Part shown: positions 3,990-51,582 of the stretch, piece by piece | Numbering within the stretch: position 1 is the stretch's first letter | How the letters are laid out: each line of letters begins with the position of its first letter | Assembly (NCBI GenBank): GCA_038731975.1 | Contig: JAVYQJ010000004.1 | Span: 61,592-125,591, forward strand | Origin: Thermofilaceae archaeon | GTDB lineage: Archaea; Thermoproteota; Thermoprotei; Thermofilales; Thermofilaceae | Direction of reading: 5' to 3' | DNA: 64,000 nucleotides | Notes under the pieces: generated by a model | What the model saw: the letters and a program-made list of their open reading frames with translations, nothing else | Told to the model about the DNA's origin: nothing | Database searches by the model: none | Position numbers and translations under genes: made by a program

Positions 3990-4094
3990 GGGCCCGTGGT
4001 CTAGCGGCTAGGACGCCCGCCTCACGAGCTCACGATCAAGCAGCCGGGTTGAGAGCGCGGGAGGTCCCGGGTTCGAATCCCGGCGGGCCCACCA
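3990..4094 (+). tRNA. tRNA-Val (CAC) with intron, CCA encoded
   Basis: The acceptor stem GGGCCCG (3990-3996) pairs with CGGGCCC (4084-4090), followed by A73 and a genomically encoded CCA. D arm, T arm (CCGGG, TTCGAAT, CCCGG) and 5-nt variable loop are standard. The anticodon stem CCCGC (4016-4020) pairs with GCGGG (4057-4061). The loop begins CTCACG, giving anticodon CAC at 4023-4025 once the 29-nt intron at 37/38 is removed. Confidence 0.92.
4027..4055 (+). other. tRNA-Val intron (29 nt, position 37/38)
   Basis: Removing these bases restores a 7-nt anticodon loop. The flanks form a bulge-helix-bulge: exon CTCA (4021-4024) pairs with intron TGAG (4050-4053), with 3-nt bulges CGA and AGC that contain the two cut sites. 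This is the canonical substrate of the archaeal tRNA splicing endonuclease. Confidence 0.85.
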
Positions 4095-44092: not shown

Positions 44093-44752
44093 CTACTCAT
44101 ACCACGCGGCCCTAAGCGTCTTAGCATGAACCTTTGTGAAGCTGCTGAGCTTCTCGATCAGCAGCTTGACCTTCGAGAGCGGCGGCTCAGGGAGCCTGTT
44201 GCCGTAGTTATCGTAGCCGATATAGACCTCCGCTGGCCTAACTTCCCTAAGGGCTGACACGAACTCGTCCAGCTCGAAGTCAAGGACGGGTTCGATAACG
44301 ATAACCTTCCTCGGCCACTCGAGCTCAGCCATCACCCTCAACCTCTCGCTGGGCTTAGGGGCGGCCGAAACCCTCTCGTAGCCATCATCGGTGCAGGTTT
44401 CAATCGTCGCGCCGAGCTCTACGTTCTCCGGCATGGCGGTGATGAACTCAAGGTAGCGGGAGGGGTTCTTCGTCAGGAAGAAGAAGGTGGTCTCCCTGTG
44501 TCTAGCGGCTACATCTAGCACCCTGAGGATCCAGTCGCGAGGAACCCAGCTCCCCCACAGGTCCCCCATGTCGCTCACGAAAACCCACTCCTCCGGCCTG
44601 AAGCGCCTGGAGAAGGCCCGCTCGTTGAGTGCCGGCTTAAACCTGTTTTCAGCGTAATGTGGGTGCTTCCTCAACCTGGTTGTAGCTAGTCTGCGCGCCC
44701 AGCAGTAGACGCAGTTGTGGAGGCAGCCAGTGACAGGATTCCACGAGGCCAC
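44093..44752 (-). CDS. DUF5131/Gp37-like radical-SAM-type protein
   Basis: 219 residues. It begins ASWNPVTGCLHNCVYCWARR, a CxxxCxYC cluster motif close to the N-terminus as in radical SAM enzymes, then EWVFVSDMGDLWGSWVP and FFFLTKNPSRYLEFI. It matches the DUF5131 (phage Gp37/Gp68-like) family. The reaction is unknown. The GTG at 44752 is the first start that keeps the Cys motif at its usual distance from the N-terminus. It lies 21 nt after the amino-acid permease gene and may be cotranscribed. Confidence 0.78.
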   Translation of the reverse strand: MASWNPVTGCLHNCVYCWARRLATTRLRKHPHYAENRFKPALNERAFSRRFRPEEWVFVSDMGDLWGSWVPRDWILRVLDVAARHRETTFFFLTKNPSRYLEFITAMPENVELGATIETCTDDGYERVSAAPKPSERLRVMAELEWPRKVIVIEPVLDFELDEFVSALREVRPAEVYIGYDNYGNRLPEPPLSKVKLLIEKLSSFTKVHAKTLRAAWYE

Positions 44753-46961: not shown

Positions 46962-47112
46962 CGGCAGCGCGCTGAACCTCGCGCGGTAGTTCGGCAGAGA
47001 GTTTTCCAGGCAGCTCTCGCTCATGAACGTAAATCTTTTAAAGTTTTCTAAGGTTGCCCCTCCCCCCAAACTCACAATCCGTAATATTTAGGCGAATTAG
47101 TAGAAGGTTTCC

Positions 47113-47814
47113 GTGAGCAGTAAGCTCACGTTAGTTAAGGCGGAAGACGTCCGCCTGAAGCGTTTAAGCACGGGCTTGCGCGACCTCGACCGCTTAACGG
47201 GCGGGCTCGTGGGCGGAGCCGCGCACCTGTTCTACGGGCTTGAACCTGCGCTCTCGCGCTTGTTCAACACGATCGTCGGCGCAGCCGCCGTCTCCGAGCG
47301 GGTCCTCGTGTTGACGGCGAGAGACTACCACAGGGGTAGATCCCTCAGCACCTTCGACCTGGCTGAAGCCGTGTCGGCTTTCGGCGGCGACCCGCTGGAC
47401 TGCCTAGGCAGGATCCTCGTCGCTAACGCTTACAGCCGCGAGCAGCTGGCCGCTCTCGGGGGTTGGCTCGCCGCTCAAGCGCCGGAAGTCGGTCTAGCAG
47501 CCGTCCTCCACCTCACCGACCTCTACGAGCCCCACAGGTACGGGGAGCTCCAGCGCTTCCTGGGCGGGCTGCGGGGGCTGTTGGCCCGCGGAGCGGCGCT
47601 CGCCCTCTTCACCGGGCCCGCCTCGAGATCGCAGCTGCCCCGACCGGATGGCCCCCACTTCCTGAGGCACTTCTGCGCCACGATCGTTAGAGTGGAGAAG
47701 GCGAAGAGGGGCTTCGCTCGGCTGGTGGTGGAGAAGGGGCCTGTGGGCACCCCGGCTGTTGCGTACGCCAGGTGCACTGGCCCCATACTGGCGGACGTGG
47801 AGGGGTGGTTCTAG
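47113..47814 (+). CDS. RecA/RadA-like protein with degenerate ATP-binding site
   Basis: 233 residues. The N-terminal RLSTGLRDLDRLTGGLVGGA and LFYGLEPALSRLFNTIV match the start of the RecA/RadA core, but the Walker A (GxxGSGKT in RadA) is replaced by GLEPALSRL, and the Walker B strand (VGLAAVLHLTDLY) lacks the acidic residue. The strand VLVLTARDYHRGR and C-terminal TIVRVEKAKRGFARLVVEKGP keep the fold. It is probably a non-ATPase RadA paralogue. The next gene starts in its stop codon and the polymerase gene follows, so all three form one operon. Confidence 0.75.
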   Translation: MSSKLTLVKAEDVRLKRLSTGLRDLDRLTGGLVGGAAHLFYGLEPALSRLFNTIVGAAAVSERVLVLTARDYHRGRSLSTFDLAEAVSAFGGDPLDCLGRILVANAYSREQLAALGGWLAAQAPEVGLAAVLHLTDLYEPHRYGELQRFLGGLRGLLARGAALALFTGPASRSQLPRPDGPHFLRHFCATIVRVEKAKRGFARLVVEKGPVGTPAVAYARCTGPILADVEGWF

Positions 47815-48110
47815 TGGGTAGGGCGGTGCCCAGCCTGAGGGAGAAGCTCGCGGAAGTCTTGAGGAGCATTGAGGCGGAGATGCTCCCCCTTCTCTCCCGG
47901 GAGAGGAGGGTGGCTTACCAGAGGGTTTCGCGCGCCTGGGTTGAGGAGTACGCCGCAGTGTCGAACTGCTCGTACCCGCACGCGCTGGTGATGATGCTGC
48001 TCGTCTCGATCCTCGACCTGCAGGCCCAGCTTACAGAGCTTGAGGAGCGTTTGCGCAGGTTGGAGGGGGTTGAGGGTGGCGGGTGCGGCGCGCTTCCTGC
48101 TCGAGGTTGA
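47814..48110 (+). CDS. Small helical protein of the PolB operon
   Basis: 98 residues from the GTG that shares one base with the preceding stop. It is mostly helical with a C-terminal coiled-coil segment (VSILDLQAQLTELEERLRRLEG). No family is recognised. It overlaps the polymerase gene by 35 nt. Its place between a RecA-like protein and a polymerase suggests an adaptor (inference). Confidence 0.75.
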   Translation: MGRAVPSLREKLAEVLRSIEAEMLPLLSRERRVAYQRVSRAWVEEYAAVSNCSYPHALVMMLLVSILDLQAQLTELEERLRRLEGVEGGGCGALPARG

Positions 48111-50082
48111 AGTGAGCGGGGACCGCGCTAAGCTCTGGTTCAAGGATTTCGATGGAGGAGTCGAGGTGGAGGGGGCGGAGTTCAAGCCCTACTTCCTGGC
48201 CATGATGGATCTGGATTCAAGCCTCGCACAAACACTGCTGGAGGCGGGCTTCGAGCTGGAGCGTGTGAGCAGGAAGCTCTTCCCGAGCGGTGAAGCGGAG
48301 CTCACAAGGGTGGAGCATAGCTCCGTGAGAGCGCTCGCTAAGGCCAGGCTTCTCCTGGAGCAGAGCGGCATCACCCTGTACGACGTGGACGTGAGGAGCG
48401 AGCAGAAGCTTCTAGCCTCCCGGCGGCTCCTAGCGTTGACACCGCAGCTCGAGGATTGTGAGGCCCGGTTTGAGCCCCTACCCCTAACCGTTCTCTCCCT
48501 CAAGGTGCGCGAGAGCACCGCGGGGTTGAAGGTACTGGCGGGGCTCGAAGGGAGGGTTCGGCGATTAAAGGGCGGCGACGCTAGGGTGGCTAAGGGGTTG
48601 GCGGAGCTGGTTGAGAGCTTCGATCCCGACGTTATCTCTTCCAACGTCAGCGTGGGAGAGTTAGCCGGGATCGCGTCCCGCCTCCTGCGCGCGTGGGAAG
48701 GCTTCAAGCTGGGTAGGGGGAGCCTTATGGGCGGCCGGATCCTTGTCAGTGAAGGCGTGCTGGAACAGGTTGGGCTGGAGGGGTTGGAGGAGCGGTGCTG
48801 GTTCTCCGGTCTACCCCCCACGCTGGCCGCCGGTACGAGCTATGGGCTGCTGGTGGAGGCAAGGCAGACCTACCTTCTGCTCAGTAGGGGTTACGCGGTG
48901 CCGAAGAGGGGTAACGGGAACTTCGTCCTTCGCCCCGCTAACTTGCTCCACGCGCGGGATAAGGGCGGGTTGATCAAGAGGCCGATCGTCGGCGTCTACG
49001 AGAACGTGGCTGAGCTGGACTTCGAATCCATGTTCCCGGGCTTGATTGTCAAGCACAATATCAGCTACGAGACTGTCACCCACGAGAGTGTCGCGCCGGA
49101 GCCGAGGGGTCTCCTGGTGGACGTCGTTGAGCCGGTGCTCCGCAGGAGGCTCATGCTCAAGAGGTTGAGGGATCAGCTATCGGGCGGGGATCGGCTGCAC
49201 GCGGAGCTGCGGCAGAGGGAGTTGAAGATGCTGCTCGTCTCCTGCTACGGCTACAGCGGTAACAGCAGGAACCGTTTGGGCAACCCGCTGACCTTTGAGT
49301 GGATCAACAGGTTGGCCAGGGAGACCCTGATCAGAGTCTACGAGCACGTGGAAAGCAGGGGATACCGGGTCGTGTACGGGGACACGGATAGCGTCTTCGT
49401 CCAGAAGTCCGGCGCGAAACCGTCCGAGTACGCGGAGCTGGCTGGGGAGCTGGCGGCGCTGACGGGCCTCCCCGTGAAGCTCGAGCGAATCTACAAGTTC
49501 ATCGCGTTCCCAGCGGCTAGGAGCCTACCGGGCGCGCCTCTAAAGAGGTACTTTGGAGTCACCCTGGAGGGAGAGCTGGTCTTCAAGGGTGTCGAAGCGG
49601 CCAGGCGCGACACGCCTCCTGCAGCCAAGAGGCTGCAGAGGGAGCTGGTGGCCACGCTCTTCCGGGCGGAGAGCCTAGAGGGGGTTTACGCGAATCTCGA
49701 AGCCGCGATCCGGCTGGCCTGTGAGTACGTGGCGAAGGCTAGGAGGGGCGAGCTTGAGCCGGCCGACCTGGTCATCGAGAGGGTGCTGCGCAAGCGGGAG
49801 TATAAGACCACTCCAGCGCACCTGGCCGCAGCCGTGCTAGCCGGGAGGGTGGTAGAGGGGGCTACCGTCCGCTACGTCCCCGTTAACACCCGGCACCCCA
49901 ACCCGCTCCGGCGCGTAAGACCCTGGAGCCCCAGCGAGAAGCGCTACGATGCAGAGTACGCCTCTGAGCTTCTCTCTAGGGCTGCCGAGACGGTGCTATC
50001 CGCGCTCGGAGCTAAGCCGGACTGGAAGCGGCACGCACCCTTATACGTGCAGCTAGACTACTCGGAGATGCACCCCAGTTAG
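48076..50082 (+). CDS. Family B DNA polymerase lacking recognisable exonuclease motifs (PolB2-like)
   Basis: 668 residues from GTG 48076, with GGAGGGGG six nt upstream. Polymerase motif A is ELDFESMFPGLIVKHN (Asp315), motif C is YGDTDSVF (Asp436, Asp438), and the KRYFGVTLEGELVFKGVEAARRD segment near residue 490 supplies the KxY and RRD elements. Motif B reads KMLLVSCYGYSG with Val in place of Asn. The exonuclease domain is short: where ExoI (DIE) should be is LSLKVRES, and the ExoII Asn/Asp region is SSNVSVGELAGI, so proofreading is very likely absent. The size and operon suggest a PolB2-type, perhaps translesion, polymerase and not the replicase. Confidence 0.9.
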   Translation: MAGAARFLLEVEVSGDRAKLWFKDFDGGVEVEGAEFKPYFLAMMDLDSSLAQTLLEAGFELERVSRKLFPSGEAELTRVEHSSVRALAKARLLLEQSGITLYDVDVRSEQKLLASRRLLALTPQLEDCEARFEPLPLTVLSLKVRESTAGLKVLAGLEGRVRRLKGGDARVAKGLAELVESFDPDVISSNVSVGELAGIASRLLRAWEGFKLGRGSLMGGRILVSEGVLEQVGLEGLEERCWFSGLPPTLAAGTSYGLLVEARQTYLLLSRGYAVPKRGNGNFVLRPANLLHARDKGGLIKRPIVGVYENVAELDFESMFPGLIVKHNISYETVTHESVAPEPRGLLVDVVEPVLRRRLMLKRLRDQLSGGDRLHAELRQRELKMLLVSCYGYSGNSRNRLGNPLTFEWINRLARETLIRVYEHVESRGYRVVYGDTDSVFVQKSGAKPSEYAELAGELAALTGLPVKLERIYKFIAFPAARSLPGAPLKRYFGVTLEGELVFKGVEAARRDTPPAAKRLQRELVATLFRAESLEGVYANLEAAIRLACEYVAKARRGELEPADLVIERVLRKREYKTTPAHLAAAVLAGRVVEGATVRYVPVNTRHPNPLRRVRPWSPSEKRYDAEYASELLSRAAETVLSALGAKPDWKRHAPLYVQLDYSEMHPS

Positions 50083-50115: not shown

Positions 50116-50234
50116 TGGCGCCGGGGCCGGGATTCGAACCCGGGCGCCCCCGAAGGGGCAGTGGGTGGCTCACCAGGCTTGCTGCGGTTCAGCGGTCTCG
50201 AGCCCACCGCCTTGGACCACTCGGCCACCCCGGC
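50116..50234 (-). tRNA. tRNA-Ser (CGA) with intron, CCA encoded
   Basis: The acceptor GCCGGGG (50234-50228) pairs with CCCCGGC (50126-50120), followed by G73 and encoded CCA. It has the long variable arm of class II tRNAs (GCCCCTTCGGGGGC). The anticodon stem GTGGG pairs with CCCAC after removal of a 30-nt intron; loop CTCGAG plus A gives anticodon CGA, serine. Confidence 0.92.
50167..50196 (-). other. tRNA-Ser intron (30 nt, position 37/38)
   Basis: Read on the minus strand, exon CTCG pairs with intron TGAG (one G-U pair), flanked by 3-nt bulges AGA and CCA that contain the splice sites: a bulge-helix-bulge. The intron itself can fold through GCTG and CAGC. Confidence 0.82.
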
Positions 50235-50269: not shown

Positions 50270-50364
50270 TGCGGAGTTAGCGCGAAACTGCCCCGTGATA
50301 CGTACGCCTTACCCGAATGCTACCTTCTATGGCGAGCGCCTCCCTATTCTTACCTAAGTCTCCC

Positions 50365-51582
50365 ATGCATCTCGTGGAGCCGAGTACGCTGGACGAGCTC
50401 TTCGACCGGTTCATGATCGAGTCTAAGATCTTCAAGGATCGCGATAAGCTGCTGCCCGACTACGTGCCCAGCGAGCTCCCCCACAGGTCTAACCAGATCC
50501 TGCAGCTGGCGAAGATCCTTGCCCCAGCTTTAGCTGGCTCAAGACCCTCGAACGTCTTCATCTACGGCCTCACGGGCACGGGTAAGACGGCTGTTGCGAA
50601 GTACGTCTTGAGGAAGCTGGAGGAGAGGGCGCAGGATCGGGTTCTCTTCGCCTACGTAAACTGCCGGCAGAACGATACCAGCTACAGGGTGATGGCTGAG
50701 CTGGCGAGGAACCTGGGCACGAGGATCCCCTTCACCGGGCTTTCCACGAGCGAGGTTTACAAGCGGTTCATGACCGTCCTGGACCGCAGGTCGAGGATCA
50801 TGGTGGTGGTCCTCGACGAGATCGACCACCTCGTCAAGAAGAGCGGCGACGACGTGCTCTACTTCCTAACCCGCATCAACGAGCAGCTCTCCTCCTCCAA
50901 GCTCTCCCTCATAGGCATCACGAACGACTTGAAGTTCACTGAGTTCCTCGACGCACGCGTCAAGAGCAGCTTGGGGGAGGAGGAGCTCGTCTTCCCACCG
51001 TACTCTGCCAAGGAGCTGGAGGACATTCTCAGGCAGCGCGCTGCCGAGGCGTTCTACGAGGGGGTTTTGATGCCAGAAGTCATACCCCTCTGCGCGGCCA
51101 TCGCGGCGAAGCAGAACGGGGACGCGAGGCTAGCTCTGGACCTACTGCTTAAAGCAGCCGACATCGCGGAGCGCGAGGGGGCTAGCAAGGTTACTGCGGA
51201 CCATGTGCGCCAGGCGCAGAGGGAGATCGAGAAGAACGTAACGGTCGACGTGATCAAGTCGATGCCCCTCCACGTCAAGCTGGTGCTGCTCGCCGTCTAC
51301 CTGCTCGAGAAAGAGGGGGCGAGGAACATCACGACGGGCATGATCTACAACAAGTACTTGGAGATCACGAAGCTGCTCGGCATCGACCCTGTCACCCAGA
51401 GGAGGGTGAGCGACATCATCAACGAGCTCGACATGAGCGGGATCGTCAACGCGAGGGTCGTCAGCCTCGGCCGTTACGGCCGCACGAAGGTGATCAGGTT
51501 GAGCACCAGCCTCAAGAACATCGAGGAGGGCCTTCAGGAGGACCTCTTCCTGCTAGGCGCCATGGAAATGGTAACACGTTAA
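50365..51582 (+). CDS. cdc6: Orc1/Cdc6 replication initiator
   Basis: 405 residues from the ATG at 50365. AAA+ motifs: VFIYGLTGTGKTAVAKYVL (Walker A, about residues 67-77), IMVVVLDEIDHLVKK (Walker B), LIGITNDLKFTEFLDARVKSS (sensor 1), and GDARLALDLLLKAADIAE (sensor 2). The C-terminal ~100 residues form the winged-helix origin-binding domain. Archaeal Orc1/Cdc6 genes often lie beside an origin, but I could not see origin recognition boxes in the flanks. Confidence 0.95.
   Translation: MHLVEPSTLDELFDRFMIESKIFKDRDKLLPDYVPSELPHRSNQILQLAKILAPALAGSRPSNVFIYGLTGTGKTAVAKYVLRKLEERAQDRVLFAYVNCRQNDTSYRVMAELARNLGTRIPFTGLSTSEVYKRFMTVLDRRSRIMVVVLDEIDHLVKKSGDDVLYFLTRINEQLSSSKLSLIGITNDLKFTEFLDARVKSSLGEEELVFPPYSAKELEDILRQRAAEAFYEGVLMPEVIPLCAAIAAKQNGDARLALDLLLKAADIAEREGASKVTADHVRQAQREIEKNVTVDVIKSMPLHVKLVLLAVYLLEKEGARNITTGMIYNKYLEITKLLGIDPVTQRRVSDIINELDMSGIVNARVVSLGRYGRTKVIRLSTSLKNIEEGLQEDLFLLGAMEMVTR

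What the first reader, a model, noticed from the sequence alone, without database searches (positions are those of the whole stretch)
47113..50082. Possible archaeal mutasome: degenerate RecA-like protein, helical adaptor and exonuclease-less PolB in one operon
Three overlapping genes encode a RadA/RecA-like protein without Walker A or B residues, a 98-residue coiled-coil protein, and a family B polymerase with intact motifs A and C but no ExoI/ExoII residues. Known: bacterial ImuA (RecA-like)-ImuB-DnaE2 form a damage-induced mutagenic polymerase set, and archaeal PolB2 proteins lack proofreading and have been tied to DNA damage responses. Inference: this operon is an archaeal counterpart in which the polymerase is still catalytically competent, with the small protein as link.
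Basis: partly seen in the sequence, partly recalled or inferred. Interest (0 to 1): 0.8.

Follow-up and report, generated by a model that had tools for sequence, protein, structure and literature searches.

The report
PolB2 mutasome operon, full catalytic motif
Three overlapping genes in a Thermofilaceae archaeon encode a RadA relative without the ATP-binding motif, a small partner protein and a DNA polymerase that lacks the proofreading residues; this is a kind of gene set already described as the PolB2 mutasome, likely to copy past DNA damage, here in the less common form whose polymerase keeps both aspartates of its catalytic motif.

Summary

New, as far as I could read: (1) in three Infirmifilum genomes (same family) PolB2 lies 161-207 kb from an iRadA-PPB2 pair, yet in 14 good genomes of the order all three genes are present together (7) or absent together (7). 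(2) In 8 of 24 evaluable DxD-intact loci a second RadA with Walker A precedes iRadA; the profile found none near PolB2 in 63 other loci. (3) No Y-family polymerase was found in 27 of 27 genomes of the order. Complex, damage induction and lesion bypass remain inferred for this locus.

The parts
47113..47814 (+). iRadA: Rad51/RadA-fold protein, 233 aa, no N-terminal helical domain, no Walker A; C-terminus LADVEGWF (candidate PCNA-binding tail)
47814..48110 (+). PPB2 (arCOG07300 type), 98 aa, N-terminus MGRAVPSLR with Arg3 and Arg9
   Evidence: MGR motif and the two Arg as described in PMC11791011
48076..50082 (+). PolB2 DNA polymerase, 668 aa from GTG 48076; exonuclease residues lost; motif C YGDTDS intact
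48922..48963 (+). PolB2 residues 283-296 (FVLRPANLLHARDK): strand-helix element followed by D295-K296, where the published iRadA-docking motif and PPB2-binding D(K/R) lie
   Evidence: strand 285-287 and helix 288-294 in the tethered model; D295 in 97 of 97 scored PolB2 rows
49018..49041 (+). motif A (D315 FESMFPG)
49225..49251 (+). motif B (K384 MLLVSCYG; canonical Asn site is Val388)
49375..49392 (+). motif C (Y434 GDTDS), both Asp present
47081..47091 (+). TATA-like AT-rich element (GTAATATTTAG) about 25 bases upstream of the iRadA start; candidate promoter, leaderless mRNA inferred
   Evidence: sequence by eye
50317..51582 (+). neighbour, not counted in the operon: Orc1/Cdc6 family protein (421 aa), separated by a tRNA gene on the - strand
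   Evidence: Cdc6_C 9.2e-30; tRNA 50119-50234 -

Best explanation
The three overlapping genes encode the iRadA, PPB2 and PolB2 proteins of a PolB2-mutasome-type operon, and their products likely assemble into one complex that would extend DNA past lesions without proofreading. Shown here: family membership of all three, loss of the iRadA P-loop and of the PolB2 exonuclease residues, retention of the polymerase aspartates of motifs A and C, and joint presence or absence of the three genes in good genomes of the order. Predicted here: iRadA docks on PolB2 (tethered AlphaFold2 model), with a strand-helix element of PolB2 (residues 285-294) where the published RadA-oligomerisation-like motif lies. 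Inferred from the published models of relatives: a PPB2 trimer that pushes one MGR arm into the PolB2/iRadA cleft close to the DNA. Inferred from the Sulfolobus relative Dpo2: induction by DNA damage and a role as extender after lesion bypass. This member belongs to the DxD-intact PolB2 clade, so it should be catalytically competent.
For: Profile and fold matches: iRadA to RadA/Rad51; PolB2 to archaeal B-family polymerases. Linkage: iRadA and PPB2 both near PolB2 in 63 of 87 evaluable loci of the phylum set, 20 of 24 DxD-intact loci. Co-occurrence: of 14 genomes of the order at least 90% complete and at most 5% contaminated, 7 have all three and 7 have none (Fisher p 5.8e-4, not corrected for kinship), including three Infirmifilum genomes in which PolB2 lies 161, 199 and 207 kb from the pair. 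D(K/R) element: D295 in 97 of 97 scored PolB2 rows; Tyr or Lys there in 10 of 10 PolB1/PolB3 rows. Tethered model pTM 0.82: a hand estimate gives about 0.71 at most if iRadA floated and about 0.85 if fully placed. No Y-family polymerase in 27 of 27 genomes of the order (11 of 14 controls ring). Papers: Dpo2 is the only damage-induced polymerase of four and is required for targeted mutagenesis (PMC7390963, listing and passages; PMC11791011 introduction), and is active without exonuclease (PMC8764526, passages).
Against: No expression, binding or activity data for this locus. No ANTTTC damage element (Sulfolobus type) in the 200 bases upstream of iRadA. PolB2 stands without iRadA or PPB2 nearby in 10 of 87 evaluable loci and with PPB2 only in 14 of 87; except for the three Infirmifilum genomes I did not look for the partners elsewhere. 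Strong PolB2 matches are missing from 18 of 27 genomes of the order, so it is dispensable. Motif B differs from the PolB1/PolB3 rows. The model output gave no PAE or coordinates, so the interface rests on pTM and secondary structure; no non-partner control was run; PPB2 was not modelled.
Confidence: 0.85

Rival explanations
1. A recombination polymerase: iRadA caps or attaches to RadA filaments and brings PolB2 to D-loops or stalled forks, so that the main job is extension of recombination intermediates, not lesion bypass.
For: iRadA is a Rad51-fold protein; in 8 of 24 evaluable DxD-intact loci a second RadA with Walker A sits 14-47 bases upstream of iRadA.
Against: The window's genome has its RadA genes elsewhere; the Sulfolobus homologue is tied to targeted mutagenesis and mismatch extension (PMC7390963, PMC8764526). 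A RadA-PolB2 complex scored poorly in PMC11791011.
Confidence: 0.12
2. A catalytically silent, regulatory polymerase homologue in replication control, as first proposed for PolB2.
For: PMC4104785 argued for inactivation because catalytic residues are replaced; Orc1/Cdc6 lies next door in the window.
Against: This member keeps the aspartates of motifs A and C, and even Dpo2, which lacks the first Asp of motif C, is as active as the replicase in nucleotide incorporation (PMC8764526, passages). Orc1/Cdc6 is separated by a tRNA gene on the other strand.
Confidence: 0.02
3. A homologue by descent of the bacterial ImuA-ImuB-DnaE2 mutasome.
For: Similar logic: RecA-fold protein, helper and polymerase.
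Against: B-family polymerase; no Y-family match in the genome; the middle gene is of the PPB2 kind.
Confidence: 0.01

Closest known systems
PolB2 mutasome (PolB2-PPB2-iRadA; PMC11791011, PMC4104785)
   Same: Same three families, gene order iRadA-PPB2-PolB2, exonuclease loss, D(K/R) element, MGR start of PPB2, loss of the iRadA P-loop.
   Different: Motif C is intact (YGDTDS), as in the TACK members that PMC11791011 reports; GWF tail on iRadA; close relatives with PolB2 far from the other two genes.
Sulfolobus Dpo2 (PMC7390963, PMC8764526)
   Same: PolB2 without proofreading residues, D(K/R) element.
   Different: Dpo2 lacks the first Asp of motif C and is shorter (540-582 aa in Sulfolobales by PMC7390963, against 668). 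Dpo2 of S. islandicus was not itself in my tree; the DxD-less PolB2 rows there lie on the other side of a branch with support 100.
E. coli Pol V (UmuD'2C-RecA)
   Same: Polymerase plus RecA/Rad51-fold protein plus small partner, by the parallels drawn in PMC11791011.
   Different: Y-family polymerase and active RecA; not homologous as a system.
ImuA-ImuB-DnaE2
   Same: RecA-fold protein with a mutagenic polymerase.
   Different: C-family polymerase and a Y-family ImuB (recalled); the genome has no Y-family match and this polymerase is B-family.

Membership tests
PolB2 mutasome | B-family polymerase of the PolB2 group (D(K/R) element, apart from PolB1/PolB3) | tested here: met
   D295-K296 present; the tree of 105 rows separates 95 PolB2 rows from 10 PolB1/PolB3 rows; element scored
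PolB2 mutasome | exonuclease active site lost | tested here: met
   ExoI FDIE reads LKVR, ExoII Phe-Asp missing; activity itself not tested
PolB2 mutasome | iRadA: Rad51/RadA core, no N-terminal domain, no ATPase residues | tested here: met
PolB2 mutasome | PPB2: small protein with N-terminal MGR(T) motif | tested here: met
   MGRAVPSLR; Gly2, Arg3, Ser7 in 6 of 6 rows of A2; helical fold not modelled here
PolB2 mutasome | three genes adjacent, same strand | tested here: met
   window; also G018, G013, G006, G208; not so in three Infirmifilum genomes
PolB2 mutasome | PolB2 binds iRadA through a strand-helix, RadA-oligomerisation-like motif | tested here: inconclusive
   tethered model pTM 0.82, strand 285-287, helix 288-294; no PAE or contact list available
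PolB2 mutasome | clamp-binding motif in iRadA or PolB2 (present in some members only) | tested here: inconclusive
   iRadA ends LADVEGWF, similar to QxxLxxFF but without Gln; GWF end in 6 of the 8 window-subclade iRadA, not in L054 and L055
PolB2 mutasome | PPB2 trimer and five-chain complex | not tested
   no multi-chain folding was offered; PPB2 is in another frame than the other two and was not tethered
PolB2 mutasome | damage-induced expression, lesion extension | not testable with these tools
   no expression or biochemical data; no ANTTTC element in 200 bases upstream
ImuA-ImuB-DnaE2 | Y-family ImuB and C-family DnaE2 | tested here: not met
   no PF00817 match in the genome; this polymerase is DNA_pol_B

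The most novel reading that the evidence does not exclude
The DxD-intact clade keeps the founding form of the mutasome: a four-gene operon RadA'-iRadA-PPB2-PolB2 with its own ATP-competent RadA paralogue. iRadA arose by tandem duplication of a radA beside a B-family polymerase, RadA' loads or switches on the polymerase as RecA does for Pol V, and the window's three-gene operon is a trimmed version that works in trans with the cell's RadA.
Probability: 0.25. Interest if true: 0.65.

Novelty: new member of a known kind. Interest (0 to 1): 0.36.

Why it matters
It places a locus read blind within a translesion system worked out mainly in Sulfolobus, and in its DxD-intact form. Two results make open questions testable. 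Three Infirmifilum genomes have the genes 161-207 kb apart yet keep all three, while kin lack all three, so co-induction and complex formation can be tested without the confounder of a shared transcript. The extra RadA paralogue in sister operons suggests where iRadA came from and how the polymerase might be switched on. No Y-family polymerase was found in the order, so PolB2 may be its only specialised translesion enzyme, and half or more of its genomes lack even that.

Tried and rejected
ImuA-ImuB-DnaE2 by descent: rejected. Viral or defence origin: no relative in viral contigs (none of 7 candidate stretches confirmed), no PHROGs family for iRadA or PPB2 (PolB2 was not given), and among the three proteins one PADLOC match, a model named homing endonuclease that matches PolB2 residues 389-648; not pursued. 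Orc1/Cdc6 as part of the operon: 4 of the 106 stretches scanned hold an ORF similar to the window's Orc1/Cdc6 (window, L054, L166, L169), and a tRNA gene lies between in the window; left as a neighbour. Sulfolobus ANTTTC damage element: absent upstream of iRadA; one copy on the other strand upstream of Orc1/Cdc6. PPB2 against solved structures: only weak matches, chance as I read them (best E 0.0071). Low genomic GC as a PolB2 hallmark (PMC7390963): DxD-intact loci have median locus GC 0.56 (29 loci) against 0.44 (71 loci), but this is locus GC without PolB2-less controls; not pursued. My first PPB2 profile drifted into iRadA through fusion genes; a clean one was built from 67 small proteins. 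Rows dropped: six fragments before the polymerase tree; three PolB3-like loci (L157-L159) before the linkage table, and 13 truncated or contig-end loci before the linkage count. Loci came mainly from matches with E up to 1e-70, so more distant PolB2 are missing. Two of the ten loci that one search counts as '+RadA WA' (L098, L117) are KaiC-like proteins and were not counted as RadA.

Full report
What is there. Three + strand genes overlap head to tail: 47113-47814 (233 aa), 47814-48110 (98 aa) and 48076-50082 (668 aa). The first and second share one base, the second and third 35. I take GTG 48076 as the polymerase start, from a Shine-Dalgarno-like sequence before it (by eye) and from the start region of homologues. 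The window lies in G000, a 1.85 Mb assembly, 95% complete. Genomes of its family include 'Thermofilum sp. NZ13' (L008, the same 319,057-base contig as G022:C1) and Infirmifilum (G026 PolB2 is 99% identical to P0017, named Infirmifilum sp.), so I take the host to be a member of Thermofilaceae.

Second gene. It starts MGRAVPSLR; Gly2, Arg3 and Ser7 are the same in 6 of 6 aligned rows. PMC11791011 describes an N-terminal MGRT motif with conserved Arg3 and Arg9 for PPB2 (arCOG07300); both Arg are present. The family profile finds it beside PolB2 in relatives. Its fold was not modelled here.

Third gene. DNA_pol_B. ExoI FDIE reads LKVR and the ExoII Phe-Asp is gone. Of the rows with a letter at the site, D315 (motif A) is Asp in 97 of 97 PolB2, K384 (motif B) Lys in 100 of 100, D438 (motif C) Asp in 100 of 100, but D436 Asp in only 29 of 100; the window has it. 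The motif B Asn site is Val (93) or Cys (7) in 100 of 100 PolB2 and Asn in 10 of 10 PolB1/PolB3 rows. I did not see this substitution discussed in the passages I read of PMC8764526. In a 105-row tree the DxD-intact PolB2 (27 rows, plus one YGAVDS row) form one side of a branch with support 100; the window's nearest rows are G018 and G208, within a 9-row subclade (quick method, SH-aLRT only).

Relatives and linkage. In the order, 27 genomes: strong PolB2 matches (E below 1e-50) in 9, iRadA (E below 1e-30) in 7, PPB2 (E below 1e-18) in 8. The two PolB2 genomes in which a partner was not found are G005 (PolB2 cut by the contig start; neither found) and G014 (PolB2 runs to a contig end on its downstream side; PPB2 found, iRadA not). 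Among the 14 genomes at least 90% complete and at most 5% contaminated, 7 have all three and 7 none (Fisher p 5.8e-4, kinship not corrected). In three Infirmifilum genomes PolB2 stands alone and an overlapping iRadA-PPB2 pair lies 161, 199 and 207 kb away. The iRadA of all three pairs keeps the GWF tail, the two PPB2 printed contain the MGR or VGR start, and the lone PolB2 keep D(K/R)GG. So shared transcription is not required for co-inheritance. Four other genomes of that genus show none of the three, one of them only 81% complete. In a phylum sample of 398 genomes, 99 had a match at E up to 1e-70. Of 100 PolB2 loci (from these 99 genomes plus G005 and G027; three PolB3-like loci removed), 87 had PolB2 of 500 aa or more and at least 1.4 kb upstream: iRadA and PPB2 nearby in 63, PPB2 only in 14, neither in 10. 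For the 14, and for 7 of the 10, I did not search elsewhere in the genome.

Complex. I let AlphaFold2 fold iRadA and PolB2 as one chain, joined by a read-through tether (59 sequences, 16 relatives paired the same way). Mean pLDDT is 85, pTM 0.82; residues 232-321, the tether, are below 50. A hand estimate gives about 0.71 at most if iRadA floated and about 0.85 if it were fully placed, so I read iRadA as having a definite place on PolB2 in the model. PolB2 residues 285-287 form a strand and 288-294 a helix just before D295-K296, as in the docking motif published for S. islandicus. I had no coordinates or PAE, and ran no non-partner control.

Operon RadA. In six genomes of family f40 and in G367 and G136 a gene 14-47 bases upstream of iRadA encodes a RadA of 282-361 aa with a Walker A. 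The four of these eight that I scanned score above the NF003301 RadA cut-off (three of the four also above TIGR02236's), and one search finds the operon copy over the NF003301 cut-off in all eight genomes. L167 (G123) has the same arrangement, 98 bases apart, but part of the gene is masked, so its Walker A is unknown. Each of the nine genomes holds another RadA with a higher score elsewhere. In a 29-row tree the seven operon RadA of f40 and f38 are one side of a branch (95/90), apart from the highest-scoring RadA of the same genomes; so in these it is not a recent copy. L167 and L169 do not join them: they group with the highest-scoring RadA of G123 (91/91), so a second origin is possible, and the label 'operon' needs two changes on the tree. 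The gene occurs in 8 of 24 evaluable DxD-intact loci; once two KaiC-like matches are set aside, the profile found none in the flanks of 63 others. It is not in the window or its 9-row subclade. G208 (L006, a Thermogladius MAG) holds two complete operons, one DxD-intact and one not (L165, L148); the DxD-intact copy lies on a 6.9 kb contig, so contamination is possible.

Translesion context. No Y-family polymerase (PF00817) in 27 of 27 genomes of the order, while 11 of 14 control genomes ring.

What is known. PMC4104785 (passages) described the PolB2-arCOG07300-inactivated RadA operon. PMC11791011 (abstract, introduction, section 2.1, sections 3.1 and 3.2, part 1 of 2 of section 3.3, discussion, and passages) modelled 40 complexes and reported DxD-intact PolB2 in TACK archaea, enrichment of orc1/cdc6 nearby, and clamp motifs in iRadA. 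PMC7390963 and PMC8764526 (listing and passages) give the genetics and biochemistry of Dpo2; PMC9738581 (passages) the Orc1-2 damage element. A search for iRadA, PPB2 or arCOG07300 gave 160 papers; of the 15 listed two concern this system. I saw neither the operon RadA nor the Infirmifilum split in what I read; supplements were not readable, so I cannot say they are unpublished.

Verdict. A well-defined member of a recently described system, in its DxD-intact form. The more interesting results lie in its relatives: the split operon and the extra RadA.

Noticed in passing
L172-L177, L166, L169 (and L167, partly masked): A RadA paralogue directly upstream of iRadA in DxD-intact PolB2 operons, with Walker A in eight; each genome has another, higher-scoring RadA.
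   Followed up: partly
G022:C1, G023:C1, G026:C1 (L050-L052, L160-L162): Three Infirmifilum genomes have PolB2 161-207 kb from an iRadA-PPB2 pair; four other genomes of the genus show none of the three.
   Followed up: yes
L148 and L165 (G208): One Thermogladius MAG holds two complete PolB2 operons, one DxD-intact and one not; contamination not excluded.
   Followed up: no
48076-50082, motif B: The Kx3N motif B Asn is Val or Cys in 100 of 100 scored PolB2 and Asn in 10 of 10 PolB1/PolB3 rows.
   Followed up: partly
27 genomes of the order: No Y-family polymerase match in any, and strong PolB2 matches in only 9, so many may have no translesion polymerase of these two families.
   Followed up: no
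3990-4091 (+) and 50119-50234 (-): Two tRNA genes found by Rfam that ARAGORN did not report; perhaps intron-containing.
   Followed up: no
50317-51582: Orc1/Cdc6 beside the operon; ORFs similar to it also lie near PolB2 in L054, L166 and L169, all DxD-intact.
   Followed up: partly
44093-44752 (-): DUF5131 protein upstream.
   Followed up: no
L008 8057-8458, L014 3502-3903: A 133-aa protein with a Cys-His cluster (SWIM-like by eye, recalled) follows the lone PolB2 in two Infirmifilum genomes.
   Followed up: no
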